A stretch of DNA of 64,000 nt from Paenibacillus sp. FSL W8-0186 (GTDB lineage Bacteria > Bacillota > Bacilli > Paenibacillales > Paenibacillaceae): assembly GCF_037969765.1 (NCBI RefSeq), contig NZ_CP150207.1, positions 372,001 through 436,000 on the forward strand, read 5' to 3'. Each line of letters starts with the position of its first letter. Position 1 is the stretch's first letter. Of this stretch, positions 40,021-46,352 are shown piece by piece. The translations under genes and the position numbers were made by a program. The notes below the pieces were generated by a model. The model saw only the letters and a list, made by a program, of their open reading frames with translations, searched no databases and was not told where the DNA came from.

Positions 40021-40056
40021 AAGAGAGCGTCCCTATGCTGTAGGGACGCTCTTTAA
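40021..40056. terminator. Bidirectional terminator
   Basis: AGAGCGTCCCTA and TAGGGACGCTCT pair perfectly around TGCTG. Flanking A and T runs allow use by the MFS gene on the plus strand and by the DUF1266 operon on the minus strand. Confidence 0.85.
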
Positions 40057-40085: not shown

Positions 40086-40727
40086 TTACGGCTTAAGGTG
40101 AAGCATTGGATTTTGGTTGCTATTCATCAATTGCATGATAATTTTACGGTTCCTGCTGACGAAGCTGAAGGGATTGTCCTGCAGCAAATACTGCTGGCCA
40201 ACGGCATAGCTGGTAACATAAGTCTCCCAGTCCGAGAAATCCGCTTTAATCAAAGAAATAACTTGGCCGATATATGCCCACATTTCATTTTCCGATAAAT
40301 AGCCTACCTCTTTCCCGGCAAAGCAGTTCAACATCGTCCATGAGTAATCGTACGCTCCGATCCCTCCAGTGGAGAGGCTCCATAAATAACGGTTGACGAC
40401 CGTGAACTGGCGCTTCCTATGTTCGTCTGTCAGAGCCTCGATATATCGGCTGCGCTCGGCGGCGGACAGTGTGGAGAGCTGGCAATAATCACGATAATAT
40501 TCGCAACGGCGGCCCGTCTCTAGGAACCACCCGATTGTGGCGGCGAGCTTTTCTTTATCATGAATATCCTGCTGCTTCAGGAAGCCGCGCATGCGCCCCC
40601 ACATACGATATTGCATCTTCGGGTTCATAACGAAGTAGCCGACCTCCTGGCCGATGGAGCAAAGGGAGAGTACGGTGTTCACGTAAGGCATCCAGGCTTT
40701 GCGTTCCTCCGGCTTATCTATGTTCAT
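40086..40727 (-). CDS. DUF1266 domain protein, third gene of the Hsp70 operon
   Basis: This 213-residue protein has no signal peptide or membrane segment. The centre and C terminus carry the DUF1266 pattern: GAYDYSWTMLNCFAGKEVGYLSENEMWAYIGQVISLIKADFSDWETYVTSY-like, with aspartate, glycine and tryptophan positions conserved in the family. It is rich in aromatic residues and helices. It follows the J-domain protein by 21 bases on the same strand and ends at a terminator. From memory, DUF1266 proteins (YbeU, YbeR) also flank hscC and the djlB/djlC co-chaperone genes in E. coli, so a role as client or partner of this Hsp70 is inferred. Its biochemical function is unknown. Confidence 0.75.
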   Translation of the reverse strand: MNIDKPEERKAWMPYVNTVLSLCSIGQEVGYFVMNPKMQYRMWGRMRGFLKQQDIHDKEKLAATIGWFLETGRRCEYYRDYCQLSTLSAAERSRYIEALTDEHRKRQFTVVNRYLWSLSTGGIGAYDYSWTMLNCFAGKEVGYLSENEMWAYIGQVISLIKADFSDWETYVTSYAVGQQYLLQDNPFSFVSRNRKIIMQLMNSNQNPMLHLKP

Positions 40728-40748
40728 TGGCTTTGAACCCCCCTGTAA

Positions 40749-43067
40749 TCAGTTGTAGCGCATGTATCTCCATTGTCTGCGAGCCTCCTGGACGAATGGA
40801 ATGTAGAACAGGATCAGGAGGGCTGTCAGGTACATGACTGTGGACGGCAGCTTGTCTGGCGGGACGGTTGTCCTGATTGTATCGTCGGCCACGATATAAT
40901 AATCGGACAGAGGGTGATCGCTTAAATAATTGTCCGACATTCGCCTTAACTCTATTAACTGGTCCATCTCCTGCTGGAGCTCCTGCGGAGGAGATAACCT
41001 CATTTCCCCCGAGATTTCCACAGTCTTGTCATTGAACACTTCCATGGCCTGCTTGTAATTGCTGATGATCATCACGGAAGCATTTCCCGAATATCCGATG
41101 CAGACATACCCGTTTAACCGATCCATAAGCCCGAGCTCCCTCGCTTTATCTGCGTGCAGGTACCGATATGTGGAGGAGCCATTGGCATCCTTGTCTTCGA
41201 TTTCCAGAATCCCTGTATATAAGGCATTCGTTAGCTTTATTCGCACGGCATGCGTCCCCGGTGGGAGACGATCCATGGCAGCGGCATCATGAACGGTGAT
41301 GATCTGCGGAGGGGCAAACACGGTTTGCACATAAGCCCAGGCCGTTTGGCCGGTATGCTTGACGATGGACTGGTTAATGATGAGATGGAGAATAATGATG
41401 ATCGTCAAGACAGGCCATCTTCGGGAAAAAAGCAGAACCACAGCTCTTTTCAACCGGCTAAGTAATGGCAGCCGACCCAGCTCCATGTTGATTTCCCGCC
41501 GCGCCTGCTTGCGGGCAGGACTTTTCAAATAAGGCAGAGCATTCTCAGTATGGCGGTGAACCGCGGCCAGGCCAAGAACAGCCTCAATATCTTCCCCGTC
41601 TATCGCCAGCGCCTGGTTGAAGTCCGCTTTGGCTTGATCCATGTTCCCCAGCTTCATCTGACATTGTCCTGCCAAGGCGAGAGCCTCGGCATGCTCCGGA
41701 ATTTGGGCCAGAACCTGCTGCGCATCTTCTAACGCTTCGGAGAATCTGTTCATGCCCAGCAGCATATGAGCTCTCATCAGGAATGCTTCGCTATCTCCAG
41801 AGGCGAGACGGATATAATCGTTGCAGGAAGCGAGGGCTTCCTCGCCATTTCCGGTTCGGCGATAGAACTCGGTTTGCAGCCGGAGCAGGTCCTTATCGTC
41901 CTTAAAAATATCGAGCGCCTTAATGAGATTCACATGGGCGGTGCGCCTATCATCCTCGATAAGCGCCATGGCGACGGCCTCGCGATAACGGAGAAATTCC
42001 TCGCGGCGCTCGTCTGTCATGTCCTGCGCTTGCAGAATGGCCGAGTAATCCATATGTAGTCCGGGCAGATCCATGATGACATAAGTATCTATTTTGGGAT
42101 ATTCCTCGGCAAAATCCTCATCCTCCATGCTCCGTTCGCGCCAGCGAAAATGTTCTTCAAGGATGCTCCAGACGTCTCTGGGCAAAAAGTAATGTTGCTC
42201 GCAATAATTGAGCATTCTCTCGGCCACCGCCCGCTGGTAATCGATGTTCCACAGCGTATCCGAACCAAGGAGCTCCAGCCAGCGACGGGTGTCCATTCGG
42301 GCAGCGAAATCCGAATATAATGCATGAACCTGCGCCATGAATTCATCTACCGGATAGGCAGATTCTTCATACCCGTCATCAAAATCAAAATCATAATCAT
42401 ACTCGTCATCAATTTCCTCATCAAAATCCTCATCTATTTCCTCATCATCGTCGTCATCCCGATCGTTATCTTCGTTATGCTCTTCAGGCTGCTCGTCGCG
42501 GCTCAGGGTATGCCATTTCGGAAGGCGCGGGATGCGGAGGGGCTCCGCGTCGGGCTCTTCGATACTTTCTGGAGGATCCTCATCATCGTCGTCATCCCGA
42601 TCGTTATCTTCGTTATGCTCTTCAGGCTGCTCATCGCGGCTCAGGGTATGCCACTTCGGAAGGCGTGAGATGCGGAGGGGCTCTGCATCGGGCTCTTCGA
42701 TACTTTCTGGAGGATCCTCTTCCTCTAAGTCATCGGGAGCGTCTTCGGACTCTAAGTCATCCGGTGTGTCTTCGTCCTCTGCGTTATGGGGAATCTCGCT
42801 GAAAATCGGTTTTTCCAAAGAGGAGAAACCCGCACCCTGCTCCACTTCTTCCTCAGCTCTTTCCTCATCCTCATCTTCTTCGTAGAGGATTTGTTCCTGC
42901 TGATGCTGTTTCGCCAGCTTCATGGCCCGATCATAGGCCTCCCTCAGCCTCTGGTATCCTTGAGGATCATCTTCGGGATGATGAATTTTCAGCTGCTTGG
43001 CGTAGGCTCGCCGAATGACGGAAGTGTCATAGGTTTGCTCAACACCGAGAATTTCCCAAATGCTCAA
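40749..43067 (-). CDS. J-domain protein with acidic repeats, TPR region and two membrane helices (DjlB/DjlC-like co-chaperone)
   Basis: This 772-residue protein starts with a J-like domain (1-52): WEILGVEQTYDTSVIRRAYAKQLK followed by HHPEDDP in place of HPD, as in the DjlC class. Residues 61-235 are extremely acidic and contain two 46-residue tandem copies (118-163, 164-209). A helical region (240-360) and TPR-like repeats (about 363-510) follow. One membrane helix lies at 547-567. A domain of about 165 residues (570-735) and a second helix (741-760) complete it. Its first 4 bases overlap the Hsp70 gene (ATGA), showing coupling. It probably recruits the adjacent Hsp70 to the membrane; clients are unknown. 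Confidence 0.82.
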   Translation of the reverse strand: MSIWEILGVEQTYDTSVIRRAYAKQLKIHHPEDDPQGYQRLREAYDRAMKLAKQHQQEQILYEEDEDEERAEEEVEQGAGFSSLEKPIFSEIPHNAEDEDTPDDLESEDAPDDLEEEDPPESIEEPDAEPLRISRLPKWHTLSRDEQPEEHNEDNDRDDDDDEDPPESIEEPDAEPLRIPRLPKWHTLSRDEQPEEHNEDNDRDDDDDEEIDEDFDEEIDDEYDYDFDFDDGYEESAYPVDEFMAQVHALYSDFAARMDTRRWLELLGSDTLWNIDYQRAVAERMLNYCEQHYFLPRDVWSILEEHFRWRERSMEDEDFAEEYPKIDTYVIMDLPGLHMDYSAILQAQDMTDERREEFLRYREAVAMALIEDDRRTAHVNLIKALDIFKDDKDLLRLQTEFYRRTGNGEEALASCNDYIRLASGDSEAFLMRAHMLLGMNRFSEALEDAQQVLAQIPEHAEALALAGQCQMKLGNMDQAKADFNQALAIDGEDIEAVLGLAAVHRHTENALPYLKSPARKQARREINMELGRLPLLSRLKRAVVLLFSRRWPVLTIIIILHLIINQSIVKHTGQTAWAYVQTVFAPPQIITVHDAAAMDRLPPGTHAVRIKLTNALYTGILEIEDKDANGSSTYRYLHADKARELGLMDRLNGYVCIGYSGNASVMIISNYKQAMEVFNDKTVEISGEMRLSPPQELQQEMDQLIELRRMSDNYLSDHPLSDYYIVADDTIRTTVPPDKLPSTVMYLTALLILFYIPFVQEARRQWRYMRYN
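42441..42716 (-). repeat. 138-bp tandem duplication inside the J-domain gene
   Basis: Two adjacent 138-bp units (42441-42578 and 42579-42716) differ at only a few positions and encode 46 residues each, starting DPPESIEEPDAEPLRI and ending in a run of Asp. The frame is kept. Confidence 0.9.
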
Positions 43068-44770
43068 AAGTAGTCACTCCACTTCTCCAGATGATCAAGC
43101 TGTTTTCGGAGCTTCGCAGCAGCCTTCTTCACCTCTTGTTCATTCTGGGAAGTAAGCACCCTCTCGAATTCAAGAAGAAGAAAAGCGATTTCTTCTCTTT
43201 TCTCGCCAAGCGCTTCTTCATATAGGCGTTCGCCCCTGGCCAGCAGCAGTCGGTTTTCGCTGCGCTCGCGCGGGTGGATTTTAATATCCTTCAATTCATC
43301 CAATCGCCGGGCGATGTCTTCCGGCGTTAGGAGCCCCGGGTTTTTCTCAATGATCATTGACTTCTTCATCCCGGTGCTCGTCGTTGTTACCTCGACCTCC
43401 AAAATTCCGTTAATGTCGTATGTAAACCGCACATCGATCGATTGCTCTCCGGCCTTGTCAGGCGGGATATCGACTTCCAGCTCTCCCAGCTTGATGTTAT
43501 TGGAGACTAGACGGCTTTCTCCTTGATAGATATCTACGGCAATGATTTTTTGCTGATCATAAAGGGTATAGTAGGATTCCACTTTACTAACCGGGATTGG
43601 CGTATTGCGCTCGATAATCGGCGAGAAATGCCCATGCTCGAATTGATTGCCCCCGCCCATTCGTTTTGAGGTTTCGATGCCCAGCGTATAAGGGCATACG
43701 TCCGTCAGGACGACTTCCTTCAGGCTTTCGTTCCGCTCCTTGAGCGCGACTTGAATAGCTGCTCCAAGAGCTACGGTTTCGTCGGGATTTACGCCGGCAA
43801 AAGGGAGACGCCCGAACATTTTCGTTACGATCGACTTGATGACAGGCATCCGGGTCGCGCCCCCGATCAGAATGACCGCATCCATATCCCGTGGAGACAG
43901 TGCGGCGTCCCGCAGCGCGCGTTCGATAGGGTGGCGCAGGCGCAGCATGAGCTGGGCGGCGATTTTCTCGTATTCATTGCGATCGATAGTAGTTTCGTAG
44001 GTCGCGTCCTCAATGGTAAAAGTCATGGTTCCGGTCGGATCTTGGCCAAGCGCCCGCTTGCATAGCTCCGCCTGCTTGAACAGCCCAGAACGGGCTTTGA
44101 GATCCAGGGAGGTATAGTCGAGGCCATGCTTCTGCACGAAATAAGAGACGAGCAGTTCTGTGAAATCCTCCCCGCCTAAATAGTTGTCTCCTGCAATCGA
44201 TTTGACCTCCATGACACCTTCAAAAAATTCAAGGATCGATACGTCAAAGGTGCCGCCCCCCAGATCGAAGACCAGAAATTTGGTCTCGGATTCTTCCTGG
44301 TGCAAGCCGTAAGCAATCGCCGCTGCCGTTGGCTCGCTGATCAGCCGCTCCACCTTCAAGCCAGCGAATTCAGCGGCGCGCTTCGTCGCTTTCCGCTGGG
44401 TATCGTTGAAGTAAGCCGGTACGCTGATGACGGCCTCGGTCACCTCTTCTCCAAAGTGGGCTTCAGCATCGGCCTTGAGCGATTTGATGACAAACGAAGA
44501 GAGCTCTTCCGGAGTAAAGGTGTATTTGCCCAGCCGGTACAGCTTCTCCGTGCCCATATAGCGTTTAAAAGTCGAAGCGGTCAGATCGGGGTGGGTCATG
44601 AGCCGTTCCTTGGCGATTTGTCCGATCAGGATCTCGCCGTTGTCGTCTACGCCGACGACAGAGGGAGTCAGATGCTCTCCGTGAACGTTTGGTATTAGTT
44701 TTGGACCTTCCTCCGTCCAATAAGCCACCAGACTATGGGTGGTCCCTAGATCGATCCCAATCATTGTCAT
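43064..44770 (-). CDS. hscC: HscC-like Hsp70 chaperone
   Basis: This 568-residue chaperone has the full ATPase signature set: MIGIDLGTTHSLVAYW at the N terminus, SEPTAAAIAYG, DLGGGTFDVSILEFFEG and IGGATRMPVIKSIV. The beta-sandwich substrate domain begins after VCPYTLGIET. The lid is short, and the protein lacks the C-terminal EEVD-like tail and the length (about 610) of DnaK, fitting the HscC class (about 556 in E. coli). It is the first gene of an operon with a coupled J-domain membrane protein and a DUF1266 protein, not with grpE or dnaJ. A dedicated rather than housekeeping chaperone role is inferred. Confidence 0.9.
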   Translation of the reverse strand: MTMIGIDLGTTHSLVAYWTEEGPKLIPNVHGEHLTPSVVGVDDNGEILIGQIAKERLMTHPDLTASTFKRYMGTEKLYRLGKYTFTPEELSSFVIKSLKADAEAHFGEEVTEAVISVPAYFNDTQRKATKRAAEFAGLKVERLISEPTAAAIAYGLHQEESETKFLVFDLGGGTFDVSILEFFEGVMEVKSIAGDNYLGGEDFTELLVSYFVQKHGLDYTSLDLKARSGLFKQAELCKRALGQDPTGTMTFTIEDATYETTIDRNEYEKIAAQLMLRLRHPIERALRDAALSPRDMDAVILIGGATRMPVIKSIVTKMFGRLPFAGVNPDETVALGAAIQVALKERNESLKEVVLTDVCPYTLGIETSKRMGGGNQFEHGHFSPIIERNTPIPVSKVESYYTLYDQQKIIAVDIYQGESRLVSNNIKLGELEVDIPPDKAGEQSIDVRFTYDINGILEVEVTTTSTGMKKSMIIEKNPGLLTPEDIARRLDELKDIKIHPRERSENRLLLARGERLYEEALGEKREEIAFLLLEFERVLTSQNEQEVKKAAAKLRKQLDHLEKWSDYF

Positions 44771-45002: not shown

Positions 45003-46352
45003 ATGATGAGTGTTCAAAGAAATATTAACGAGCAGAAGAAGGATCGATTTTCTTCTACCGGGTTTATAATGGCCGCGATCGGGAGCTCCGTGGGCCTCGG
45101 GAATATGTGGAAGTTCCCTTACATTACCGGTGAGAACGGCGGGGCGGCATTTTTCCTGCTATTTATTATCTGCCTAGTGGTTATAGGGCTGCCCGTGCTT
45201 CTGGCTGAGCTGGCGATCGGCCGCAGCGGACGGGGCAGCGCAGCAACCGCATTCGTAAGGGTGGGCGGTAAGCCTGGCTGGAAGGGGCTTGGCATTCTGC
45301 AGGTCATTGCTCCCTTTATGATTCTGTCGTTCTATATCATCGTTGCAGGCTGGACGCTGCATTATGCGGTGACGGCTTTTAGCGGGAATTTGTTTAGTGA
45401 TACGGATTTTGCGGGACAGTTCTCCCATTTTGTATCCGGCTATATGCCGATCTTCTGGCAGTTCGTTGCCCTGCTGATCACAGGCGGCGTGGTCATTCTC
45501 GGGATTTCCGGCGGCATCGAGAAATTCAATAAAATTCTGATCCCGAGTCTTGTCGTTCTGTTGATCGTCCTGATGATTCGGGCCGTAACCCTTCCGGGGG
45601 CGGAGGCGGGGGTATCCTTTTTCCTTAATCCGGATTTCTCCCAATTGACCGCCGAGTCGGCGTTGGTCGCGCTGGGACATGCATTCTTCTCCCTGTCGCT
45701 CGGGATGGGTATTTTGTTGACGTATGGTTCCTATGTGCGGAAGGAGCAGTCCCTTGGCTCAGCGACGCTGGCCATTGGCGCGGGCGATTTGATCTACGCA
45801 TTTATTGCAGGGCTGATCATTTTCCCGACGACCTTCTCGTTTGGCATCGCTCCGGATCAGGGGCCGTCGCTTGTATTTATCGCGCTGCCGGCTGCGTTCT
45901 CGGCTATGCCGTGGGGAGCATTCTTCGGGGGACTATTCTTCATCCTGCTGGCCATCGCTGCCTTGACGTCGGCCGTATCCCTGCTGGAGGTTCCTGTATC
46001 CTATACGATGGAGCGCTTCGGCTGGAGCCGCAGACGATCCGTCTGGATTCTCATCCTGCTGCTCTTCCTGCTGGGGGTGCCTTCCTCGTTATCCCTTGGC
46101 ATGGTTCCAGAGCTTACGTTTGGCGGAAAAGCCTTCTTTGACTGGGTGGACTTCATCACGTCCAACATCATGCTGCCGATCGGCGGGCTGGCGATTACGA
46201 TCTTCGCAGGGTACTTCTGGAAGGGAGCGGCGGAAGCTTCCGGCCTGCGTGCTGGCTGGTTCCGCGTGTGGCTGTTCATGCTGCGCTACATCGCGCCGAT
46301 TCTTGTATTCCTGGTGCTGCTGCATACTTCGGGCATTATCCAATTTAAATAG
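45003..46352 (+). CDS. Sodium-dependent neurotransmitter-symporter family transporter (NSS/SNF)
   Basis: This 449-residue membrane protein has 11-12 helices. The family N-terminal motif FIMAAIGSSVGLGNMWKFPYITGENGGAAFFLLF, including the unwound part of helix 1 that binds Na+ and substrate, is intact. LAELAIGRSGRGS and the helix 6 region HAFFSLSLGMGILLTYGSY are also present. Bacterial members import amino acids such as tryptophan, tyrosine, leucine or alanine with sodium. It stands alone, transcribed divergently from the Hsp70 operon, and ends at a strong terminator. Alanine dehydrogenase 2.3 kb away might use such an amino acid, but no shared control is seen. Confidence 0.93.
   Translation: MMSVQRNINEQKKDRFSSTGFIMAAIGSSVGLGNMWKFPYITGENGGAAFFLLFIICLVVIGLPVLLAELAIGRSGRGSAATAFVRVGGKPGWKGLGILQVIAPFMILSFYIIVAGWTLHYAVTAFSGNLFSDTDFAGQFSHFVSGYMPIFWQFVALLITGGVVILGISGGIEKFNKILIPSLVVLLIVLMIRAVTLPGAEAGVSFFLNPDFSQLTAESALVALGHAFFSLSLGMGILLTYGSYVRKEQSLGSATLAIGAGDLIYAFIAGLIIFPTTFSFGIAPDQGPSLVFIALPAAFSAMPWGAFFGGLFFILLAIAALTSAVSLLEVPVSYTMERFGWSRRRSVWILILLLFLLGVPSSLSLGMVPELTFGGKAFFDWVDFITSNIMLPIGGLAITIFAGYFWKGAAEASGLRAGWFRVWLFMLRYIAPILVFLVLLHTSGIIQFK

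What the first reader, a model, noticed from the sequence alone, without database searches (positions are those of the whole stretch)
40086..44770. Hsp70 / J-TPR membrane protein / DUF1266 operon: a dedicated chaperone system in a Gram-positive
Seen: an HscC-length Hsp70 gene overlaps by 4 bases a gene for a J-domain protein with acidic, TPR and two membrane segments; a DUF1266 gene follows 21 bases later and a terminator closes the unit. No grpE or dnaJ is present. Known (from memory): in E. coli, hscC lies with the DjlB/DjlC J-proteins and DUF1266 proteins YbeU/YbeR, and that set is little understood. Inference: the three-part set is conserved across distant phyla as one machine, with a membrane-anchored co-chaperone and a DUF1266 client or adaptor.
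Basis: partly seen in the sequence, partly recalled or inferred. Interest (0 to 1): 0.78.

Follow-up and report, generated by a model that had tools for sequence, protein, structure and literature searches.

The report
Membrane-linked HscC chaperone operon with DUF1266
A Paenibacillus-type bacterium carries a small operon for a specialised Hsp70 chaperone, its membrane-anchored helper and a third protein of unknown function; comparison with other genomes shows that helper and third protein often travel together and are sometimes one fused protein, so the third protein looks like a working part of this little-understood chaperone machine.

Summary
Three tightly spaced minus-strand genes (window 44770-40086) encode an HscC-class Hsp70, a J/TPR protein with two predicted membrane segments, and a DUF1266 protein; a 12-pair terminator stem follows. 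The Hsp70 lies inside the HscC clade and shows the published HscC deletions. The linkage holds outside Enterobacteria: in 118 genomes of the same family all 20 with DUF1266 also have HscC (24 of 118), and 30 of 32 DUF1266 genes lie beside a J gene. In two Bacillus records J and DUF1266 are one protein, directly after hscC. DUF1266 is not universal: of 61 HscC loci 59 have a J gene and 31 have DUF1266, and many DUF1266 genes elsewhere have no HscC link. Best reading: HscC works with membrane J arms, and DUF1266 is a cytoplasmic subunit of the arm, adaptor or regulator rather than client. DUF1266-linked J proteins carry HPE in 29 of 31, the others in 2 of 28, but the link is clade-level and a separate set holds HPE systems without DUF1266. 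Function is untested. A new variant of a known kind.

The parts
43064..44770 (-). hscC-class Hsp70, 568 aa
   Evidence: Pfam HSP70 473.3 bits; 46% identical to E. coli HscC, 38-40% to DnaKs by BLASTP; inside the HscC clade; HscC deletions present
40749..43067 (-). J-domain / acidic / TPR / two-membrane-segment co-chaperone, 772 aa, TTG start overlapping the hscC stop by 4 bases
   Evidence: HPE-type J domain shared with DjlB/DjlC
42900..43067 (-). J domain, residues 1-56
   Evidence: alignment A1; Pfam DnaJ 22.1 bits, below its cut-off
42972..42980 (-). HPE motif, residues 30-32 (HPD in ordinary J domains)
42378..42899 (-). acidic linker, holding a 46-residue (138-base) tandem duplication at about 42441-42716
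   Evidence: sequence, unit length counted by eye; the second copy is missing in the 721-aa P. woosongensis protein of L143
41562..41762 (-). TPR repeats, residues 436-502
   Evidence: Pfam TPR_19 39.9 bits
41388..41444 (-). predicted membrane segment 1, residues 542-560
   Evidence: hydropathy scan
40848..41387 (-). about 180 residues between the membrane segments, probably outside the cell (topology inferred)
   Evidence: hydropathy scan; 9 relatives found for residues 535-772, all with TPR domains in their Pfam lists
40791..40847 (-). predicted membrane segment 2, residues 741-759
   Evidence: hydropathy scan
40086..40727 (-). DUF1266 protein, 213 aa, all-helical predicted fold
   Evidence: PF06889 85.7 bits, residues 54-209; AlphaFold2 model, mean pLDDT 90.0
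40024..40052 (-). intrinsic terminator closing the unit, 12-pair stem

Best explanation
The three genes encode a dedicated HscC chaperone system. The J protein sits in the membrane with its J domain, acidic linker and TPRs in the cytoplasm, and recruits and switches on HscC there, without GrpE. DUF1266 is an all-helical cytoplasmic subunit that works with the J protein at the membrane, as an adaptor that helps bind or choose the client, or tunes the J arm. One HscC can be served by several J-DUF1266 arms encoded elsewhere in the genome. Shown here: gene content, HscC class, linkage, fusion, predicted domain layout. Inferred: physical interaction, topology, client type and function.
For: HscC class: tree and diagnostic deletions. 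Co-occurrence: all 20 DUF1266 genomes of 118 have HscC, 0 of the 94 without HscC have DUF1266 (Fisher 5e-19, not corrected for kinship). Linkage: of 29 family HscC genes 23 have J and DUF1266 beside them, 4 J alone, 2 neither. J-anchored named loci: of 75, 56 hold HscC, 67 DUF1266, 49 both, 1 neither (set selected by the HPE motif, several loci from the same genomes). Gene order varies: HscC-J-DUF1266 mostly, J-DUF1266-HscC in G100 and G116, hscC divergent from J in L167, L173, L183, L190, DUF1266-J with hscC facing in Enterovibrio and E. coli. Flanking genes share no recurrent family: the commonest is in 5 of 87. Fusion: J-TPR-hydrophobic hairpin-DUF1266 in Bacillus sp. REN10 (672 aa) and in DE0224 (645 aa), 43% identical, right after hscC. 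Arms: 7 J-DUF1266 pairs without a neighbouring hscC, all in genomes with HscC. Membrane segment in 76 of 88 J proteins of the 75 loci. Published: DjlC stimulates HscC ATPase and is membrane-inserted (PMC8215388 section 12 part 2).
Against: No binding or function was tested. DUF1266 is absent beside 30 of 61 HscC genes, so it is not needed for every HscC system; two genomes with HscC and an HPE-type J (L189, L217) have no DUF1266 match anywhere. In the Pseudomonadota sample 12 of 20 DUF1266 genomes, and in the Bacillota sample 8 of 14, have no detected HscC; 3 of the 8 Pseudomonadota genomes with both have them apart (G657, G707, G861). Twelve of 88 J proteins show no membrane segment at the cut-off used. 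Two HscC genes (G025, G049) stand apart from the J-DUF1266 pair of their genome. The DUF1266 model has no informative PDB match, so the fold suggests no function.
Confidence: 0.62

Rival explanations
1. DUF1266 is a modulator that binds the J domain itself, in the way CbpM inhibits CbpA, or otherwise sets the J-HscC cycle in place of GrpE. The HPE form of the motif would be the form that DUF1266 can control.
For: J-DUF1266 adjacency closer than HscC-DUF1266 in the own family. HPE in 28 of 30 DUF1266-linked J proteins and in 2 of 20 others; 9 of 9 plasmid loci fetched later agree; 7 of 7 J-DUF1266 pairs without hscC are HPE. A J-domain inhibitor complex, CbpM-CbpA, is known (PMC8215388 passage).
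Against: The tree needs only 3 changes of HPE and 7 of DUF1266; the independent-pairs test gives no support (p = 1, few pairs). L138 (DUF1266, no HPE), L269 (DUF1266, GPE) and L106, L142 (HPE, no DUF1266) break the rule. In the set selected by HPE, 7 of 56 HscC loci (L159, L168, L182, L189, L192, L216, L217; L182 is a short contig) show no DUF1266, and the genomes of L189 and L217 have none at all.
Confidence: 0.2
2. DUF1266 is a dedicated client that HscC and the J protein fold or assemble.
For: Client genes often lie with their chaperone (general knowledge); DUF1266 occurs elsewhere in other contexts.
Against: Natural fusion of J protein and DUF1266 is unexpected for a client; several paralogous J-DUF1266 pairs per genome.
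Confidence: 0.1
3. The genes are co-inherited as an accessory island without working together directly.
For: Patchy distribution: HscC in 24 of 118, 9 of 398 and 18 of 398 sampled genomes, also on plasmids.
Against: Fusion, different gene orders, linkage in two phyla whose HscC proteins group by phylum, and no shared flanking genes.
Confidence: 0.08

Closest known systems
E. coli HscC with DjlB/DjlC and neighbours YbeR/YbeU (DUF1266)
   Same: HscC-class Hsp70, HPE-type J domain, membrane J protein, DUF1266 gene beside each J gene
   Different: Here one operon in the order hscC-J-DUF1266; the J protein has an acidic linker, TPRs and two membrane segments with about 180 residues between them; BLASTP finds no similarity outside residues 2-75
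DnaK-DnaJ-GrpE
   Same: Hsp70 family and J-domain logic
   Different: No GrpE signature in the Hsp70, 36-41% identity depending on the alignment, separate locus in the same genome
HscA-HscB
   Same: Specialised Hsp70 with its own J protein and without the GrpE signature
   Different: No Fe-S genes beside it; Hsp70 35-36% identical and outside the HscC clade
HscC-J pairs without DUF1266 (many Pseudomonadota, some Bacillota)
   Same: HscC with a J gene next door
   Different: J motif mostly RPD, RPE, SPE, NPE, PPE or lost, HPE in 2 of 20; J proteins with other membrane layouts
CbpA-CbpM
   Same: J protein with a small partner that binds its J domain (complex named in PMC8215388, passage; the neighbouring genes are recalled)
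   Different: Likeness of mechanism only; no comparison of CbpM with DUF1266 was run

Membership tests
HscC-class Hsp70 | Length 550-580 aa (PMC8215388) | tested here: met
   568 aa
HscC-class Hsp70 | Groups with HscC, apart from DnaK and HscA | tested here: met
   100/100 branch, 53 HscC rows against 2 DnaK and 1 HscA
HscC-class Hsp70 | DnaK residues 76-101 deleted | tested here: met
   (also deleted in the same genome's DnaK, so not diagnostic alone)
HscC-class Hsp70 | GrpE signature (290-295) deleted | tested here: met
HscC-class Hsp70 | Deletion of the loop holding D211 | tested here: met
   (shared with own DnaK and HscA)
HscC-class Hsp70 | Insertion of 4-8 residues in loop L1,2 of the substrate domain | tested here: met
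   insertion present, 10 alignment columns against DnaK, longer than the quoted range
HscC-class Hsp70 | Deletion in helix B of the lid (nine residues in the review) | tested here: met
   gaps of 3 and 11 columns in that stretch
HscC-class Hsp70 | ATPase stimulated by its own J protein and not by DnaJ | not testable with these tools
   needs biochemistry
DjlB/DjlC-type J protein | N-terminal J domain with HPE motif | tested here: met
   44-45% identity to DjlB/DjlC in the J domain; P31, E32, D34 and G37 invariant in the 11 aligned
DjlB/DjlC-type J protein | Tail-anchored | tested here: not met
   two segments, 542-560 and 741-759; filed as working like DjlC, not as DjlC itself
DjlB/DjlC-type J protein | Similarity along the whole protein | tested here: not met
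   BLASTP covers residues 2-75 only
DUF1266 (PF06889) | Score over the family's cut-off | tested here: met
   85.7 bits against 27
Housekeeping DnaK | Meets NCBIfam DnaK cut-off | tested here: not met
   459.9 against 648, and 451.1 against 822.55
Anti-phage defence system | Match to a PADLOC model | tested here: inconclusive
   only a weak match, 13.9 bits, E 0.0039, Hsp70 to PDC-M61B; none for the J and DUF1266 proteins. Of 87 flanking proteins, each PADLOC family shown (25 of 37) matched one

The most novel reading that the evidence does not exclude
HscC systems come in at least two kinds: HPE/DUF1266 systems, and systems without DUF1266 whose J motif has mostly drifted to RPD or further. 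DUF1266 is a previously unrecognised Hsp70 cofactor family that binds the J arm and sets its cycle or client choice, filling the place that GrpE or a CbpM-like regulator fills elsewhere, and several J-DUF1266 arms share one HscC at the membrane.
Probability: 0.25. Interest if true: 0.8.

Novelty: new variant of a known kind. Interest (0 to 1): 0.55.

Why it matters
The job of HscC is little understood and DUF1266 is a family of unknown function. The fusion and the linkage give DUF1266 a concrete, testable role beside an Hsp70, in E. coli K-12 as well as in Gram-positives. The HscC-linked J proteins with RPD in place of HPD bear on the statement of a 2026 review that HPE seems the only tolerated change of the motif (PMC13254874, passage): either RPD works with HscC or these J proteins do something else.

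Tried and rejected

Errors and dropped material: one search read minus-strand matches on the wrong strand, so its tree is discarded and one search replaces it (69 rows; L124, L236 and L237 dropped as shorter than 110 residues). In one search my filter of overlapping ORFs hid some genes; one search repeats the scan without that filter and is the one counted. Searches used 87 of the 198 candidate flanking proteins, at most one upstream and one downstream per locus; some loci, near-identical ones among them, were left out.

Full report
Check of the observation. The Hsp70 stop and the J start overlap by 4 bases, and 21 bases separate the J stop from the DUF1266 ATG. Pfam gives HSP70 (473.3 bits), TPR repeats, a J domain below its cut-off (22.1 against 27.8 bits) and DUF1266 (85.7 against 27 bits). 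A 12-pair stem followed by a T-rich tail lies at 40052-40024. The J protein has an acidic linker and two hydrophobic segments. There is no grpE or dnaJ in the unit; grpE, dnaK and dnaJ lie together near 3.76 Mb. The nearest named records are Paenibacillus woosongensis, so the window is probably that species or near it.

The Hsp70 is HscC. It is 46% identical to E. coli HscC and 38-40% to the E. coli and own DnaKs (BLASTP). In a tree of 53 HscC rows with two DnaKs and one HscA, the HscC rows form one group with 100/100 support and the window lies inside. Features that a review gives for HscC (PMC8215388; I saw the outline and abstract, passages, and section 12 part 2) are present: 568 aa, loss of the GrpE signature, loss of the stretch matching DnaK 76-101, loss of the loop holding D211, an insertion in loop L1,2 and a shortened lid. 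The 76-101 and D211 losses are also seen in the own DnaK and do not decide alone. NCBI already calls many close relatives 'molecular chaperone HscC', so HscC in Paenibacillus as such is not new.

The J protein belongs with DjlB and DjlC by its J domain only. That domain has HPE instead of HPD, as in DjlB and DjlC; in 11 J domains that I chose and aligned, P31, E32, D34 and G37 never vary. BLASTP to DjlB/DjlC covers residues 2-75 only. A 2026 review states that HPE is found in DjlB and DjlC and seems the only tolerated change (PMC13254874, passages).

Neighbourhood in the same family. In 118 genomes, DUF1266 occurs in 20 (32 genes) and HscC, clearly apart from DnaK in score (at least 682 against at most 400 bits), in 24 (29 genes). 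All 20 DUF1266 genomes have HscC; none of the 94 genomes without HscC has DUF1266 (Fisher 5e-19; not corrected for kinship). Of the 29 hscC genes, 23 have both J and DUF1266 beside them, 4 have J alone and 2 (G025, G049) neither. Of the 32 DUF1266 genes, 23 are in such trios, 7 are J-DUF1266 pairs without hscC in the stretch fetched, and 2 are solitary. The own genome has one trio, one J-DUF1266 pair, one solitary DUF1266 gene and one solitary HPE-type J gene.

Neighbourhood beyond the family. In 398 Bacillota genomes DUF1266 is in 14, HscC in 9, both in 6 (Fisher 5e-8). In 398 genomes of the phylum of Enterovibrio (Pseudomonadota, by the record's name) DUF1266 is in 20, HscC in 18, both in 8, at one locus in 5 (Fisher 3e-7). 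HscC was sought with strict limits (1e-135 and 1e-120), so distant members may be missed. All 18 Pseudomonadota hscC genes and all 5 Bacillota ones from outside the family have a J gene next door. So do 9 of 9 plasmid loci, one for each genus other than Escherichia among the 34 plasmid records with a hit; two of the 7 Escherichia records were opened, look like chromosome pieces, and none of the 7 is counted. In sum 59 of 61 HscC loci have J and 31 of 61 have DUF1266. A scan of one genome for each of 84,980 species with the pattern HPE[DET]D[PA]xG[FY][QK] gave 381 confirmed stretches, of which the best 80 were kept as 75 loci: within 10 kb, 56 hold HscC, 67 DUF1266, 49 both, 1 neither. This set is selected for HPE and for likeness to the window's J domain, and some genomes give several loci.

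Why the linkage is likely functional. Gene order differs: hscC-J-DUF1266 in most Bacillota, J-DUF1266-hscC in G100 and G116, J before hscC in G335 and G508, hscC divergent from J in L167, L173, L183 and L190, DUF1266-J with hscC facing in Enterovibrio and E. coli. In the careful tree the HscC proteins of the two phyla form separate groups, so the shared arrangement is not one recent transfer. Flanking genes have little in common: the commonest family is in 5 of 87. Most telling, two records (titled Bacillus sp. REN10 and Bacillus subtilis DE0224; I did not check the second name) carry one protein with J domain, TPRs, a hydrophobic stretch and DUF1266, directly after hscC; the two are 43% identical. 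The REN10 contig is also G308 of the Bacillota sample (equal contig length and protein), so it is one case and not two. The predicted structure of the REN10 fusion (mean pLDDT 83.7) shows a folded J domain, a helical and TPR body, two long helices at 364-439 with middling confidence, a flexible linker and a separately folded DUF1266 domain. The tool gives no inter-domain error, so no interface is claimed.

DUF1266 itself. The window protein is predicted with confidence (pLDDT 90.0) as an all-helical domain without an informative match among solved structures. Elsewhere DUF1266 occurs in tandem in one protein (for example L272), with TPRs (L131, L134) or with a copper amine oxidase N-terminal-type domain (L130), and my profiles find no HscC or DjlC-type J in the stretches fetched there. 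DUF1266 is therefore a general module that HscC systems have recruited once or more; one clade of J-linked DUF1266 is neither rejected nor shown.

A link between the J motif and DUF1266. The motif was read by eye from the printed J domains. At 50 HscC loci with a J gene, DUF1266-linked J proteins carry HPE in 28 of 30 (exceptions: L138, motif lost; L269, GPE). The other 20 are HPE in 2 (L106, L142), RPD in 7, SPE in 2, NPE in 2, RPE in 1, PPE in 1, and without a recognisable motif in 5. In the 9 plasmid loci, fetched after this count, the one with DUF1266 is HPE and the eight without are RPD (4), RPE (1) or lost (3). The 7 J-DUF1266 pairs without hscC are all HPE. Against it: on the HscC tree HPE needs only 3 changes and DUF1266 7, and the independent-pairs test gives no support; and in the HPE-selected set 7 of 56 HscC loci show no DUF1266 within 10 kb (L159, L168, L182 on a short contig, L189, L192, L216, L217), the genomes of L189 (Pseudobacteroides) and L217 (Pelosinus) having no DUF1266 match at all. 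So HPE does not require DUF1266; the other direction, DUF1266 with HPE, is the stronger one, and all of it may be inheritance.

Mechanism. The best-supported picture is a J arm in the membrane that brings HscC there, with DUF1266 as a cytoplasmic subunit of the arm. Published support for the HscC-J step comes from E. coli: DjlC, not DnaJ, CbpA or HscB, stimulates HscC, and DjlC is in the membrane (PMC8215388). That DUF1266 takes part rests on linkage and fusion only. Several J-DUF1266 pairs per HscC, as in the own genome and in E. coli with DjlB-YbeR and DjlC-YbeU, suggest that arms choose clients or places. The long stretch between the two membrane segments, also seen in many relatives, probably lies outside the cell and could sense or dock there; this is inference.

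What is in print. In the held library the word DUF1266 is in 3 papers (listing, and passages of PMC7582179, where a DUF1266 gene of E. coli 042 is raised in an hns2 mutant, 8.2-fold at 25 C and 5.0-fold at 37 C). None of these 3 is among the 7 papers that hold both hscC and djlC (listing, passages of two). Of 5 papers holding at least two of ybeU, ybeR, djlB and hscC, two name ybeU or ybeR: PMC6935094, where a passage lists them as poorly characterised neighbours, and PMC10652928, seen as a listing only. The main survey of bacterial J proteins, Barriot et al. 2020, was seen only as a citation and may already describe part of the HscC-J neighbourhood. A search for 'HPE motif' with J-domain found nothing.

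Verdict. This is a Gram-positive form of the HscC/DjlC system, with DUF1266 as a recurring third part of the J arm: a new variant of a known kind, whose function is still open but now directly testable in E. coli K-12.

Noticed in passing
window 42441-42716: A 46-residue (138-base) unit in the acidic linker of the J protein is present twice in tandem; a P. woosongensis relative (L143) has a 721-aa protein without the second copy.
   Followed up: partly
L016:5801-7177 and L017:4806-7345 (own genome near 2.04 and 2.05 Mb): A solitary HPE-type J gene and, about 15 kb on, a J-DUF1266 pair without hscC.
   Followed up: partly
L018:9786-10541 (own genome near 1.076 Mb): A solitary DUF1266 protein with a hydrophobic N-terminus and no DjlC-type J or HscC gene in the 18 kb fetched.
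   Followed up: no
L299 (Pseudomonas oryzihabitans plasmid): An hscC-J pair (RPD motif, no DUF1266) lies next to copper resistance and heavy-metal two-component genes.
   Followed up: no
L130, L131, L134, L272: DUF1266 fused to a copper amine oxidase N-terminal-type domain, to TPRs, or in tandem, without HscC nearby.
   Followed up: partly
L288, L289, L291, L293, L294: HscC-adjacent J proteins in which the HPD/HPE motif is not recognisable.
   Followed up: no
proteins P0128-P0136: All nine relatives of the window J protein bear a precomputed Pfam domain PF27158 that the local Pfam scan did not report for the window protein; what it describes was not looked up.
   Followed up: no
E. coli genomes: The djlC-hscC stretch of K-12 has a match in 4379 of 5426 complete E. 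coli genomes, so it is common but not universal at this sensitivity.
   Followed up: no
window 45003-46352: The gene divergent from hscC encodes a sodium:neurotransmitter symporter family protein; 3 of 87 flanking proteins, that of L143 among them, match this family.
   Followed up: no
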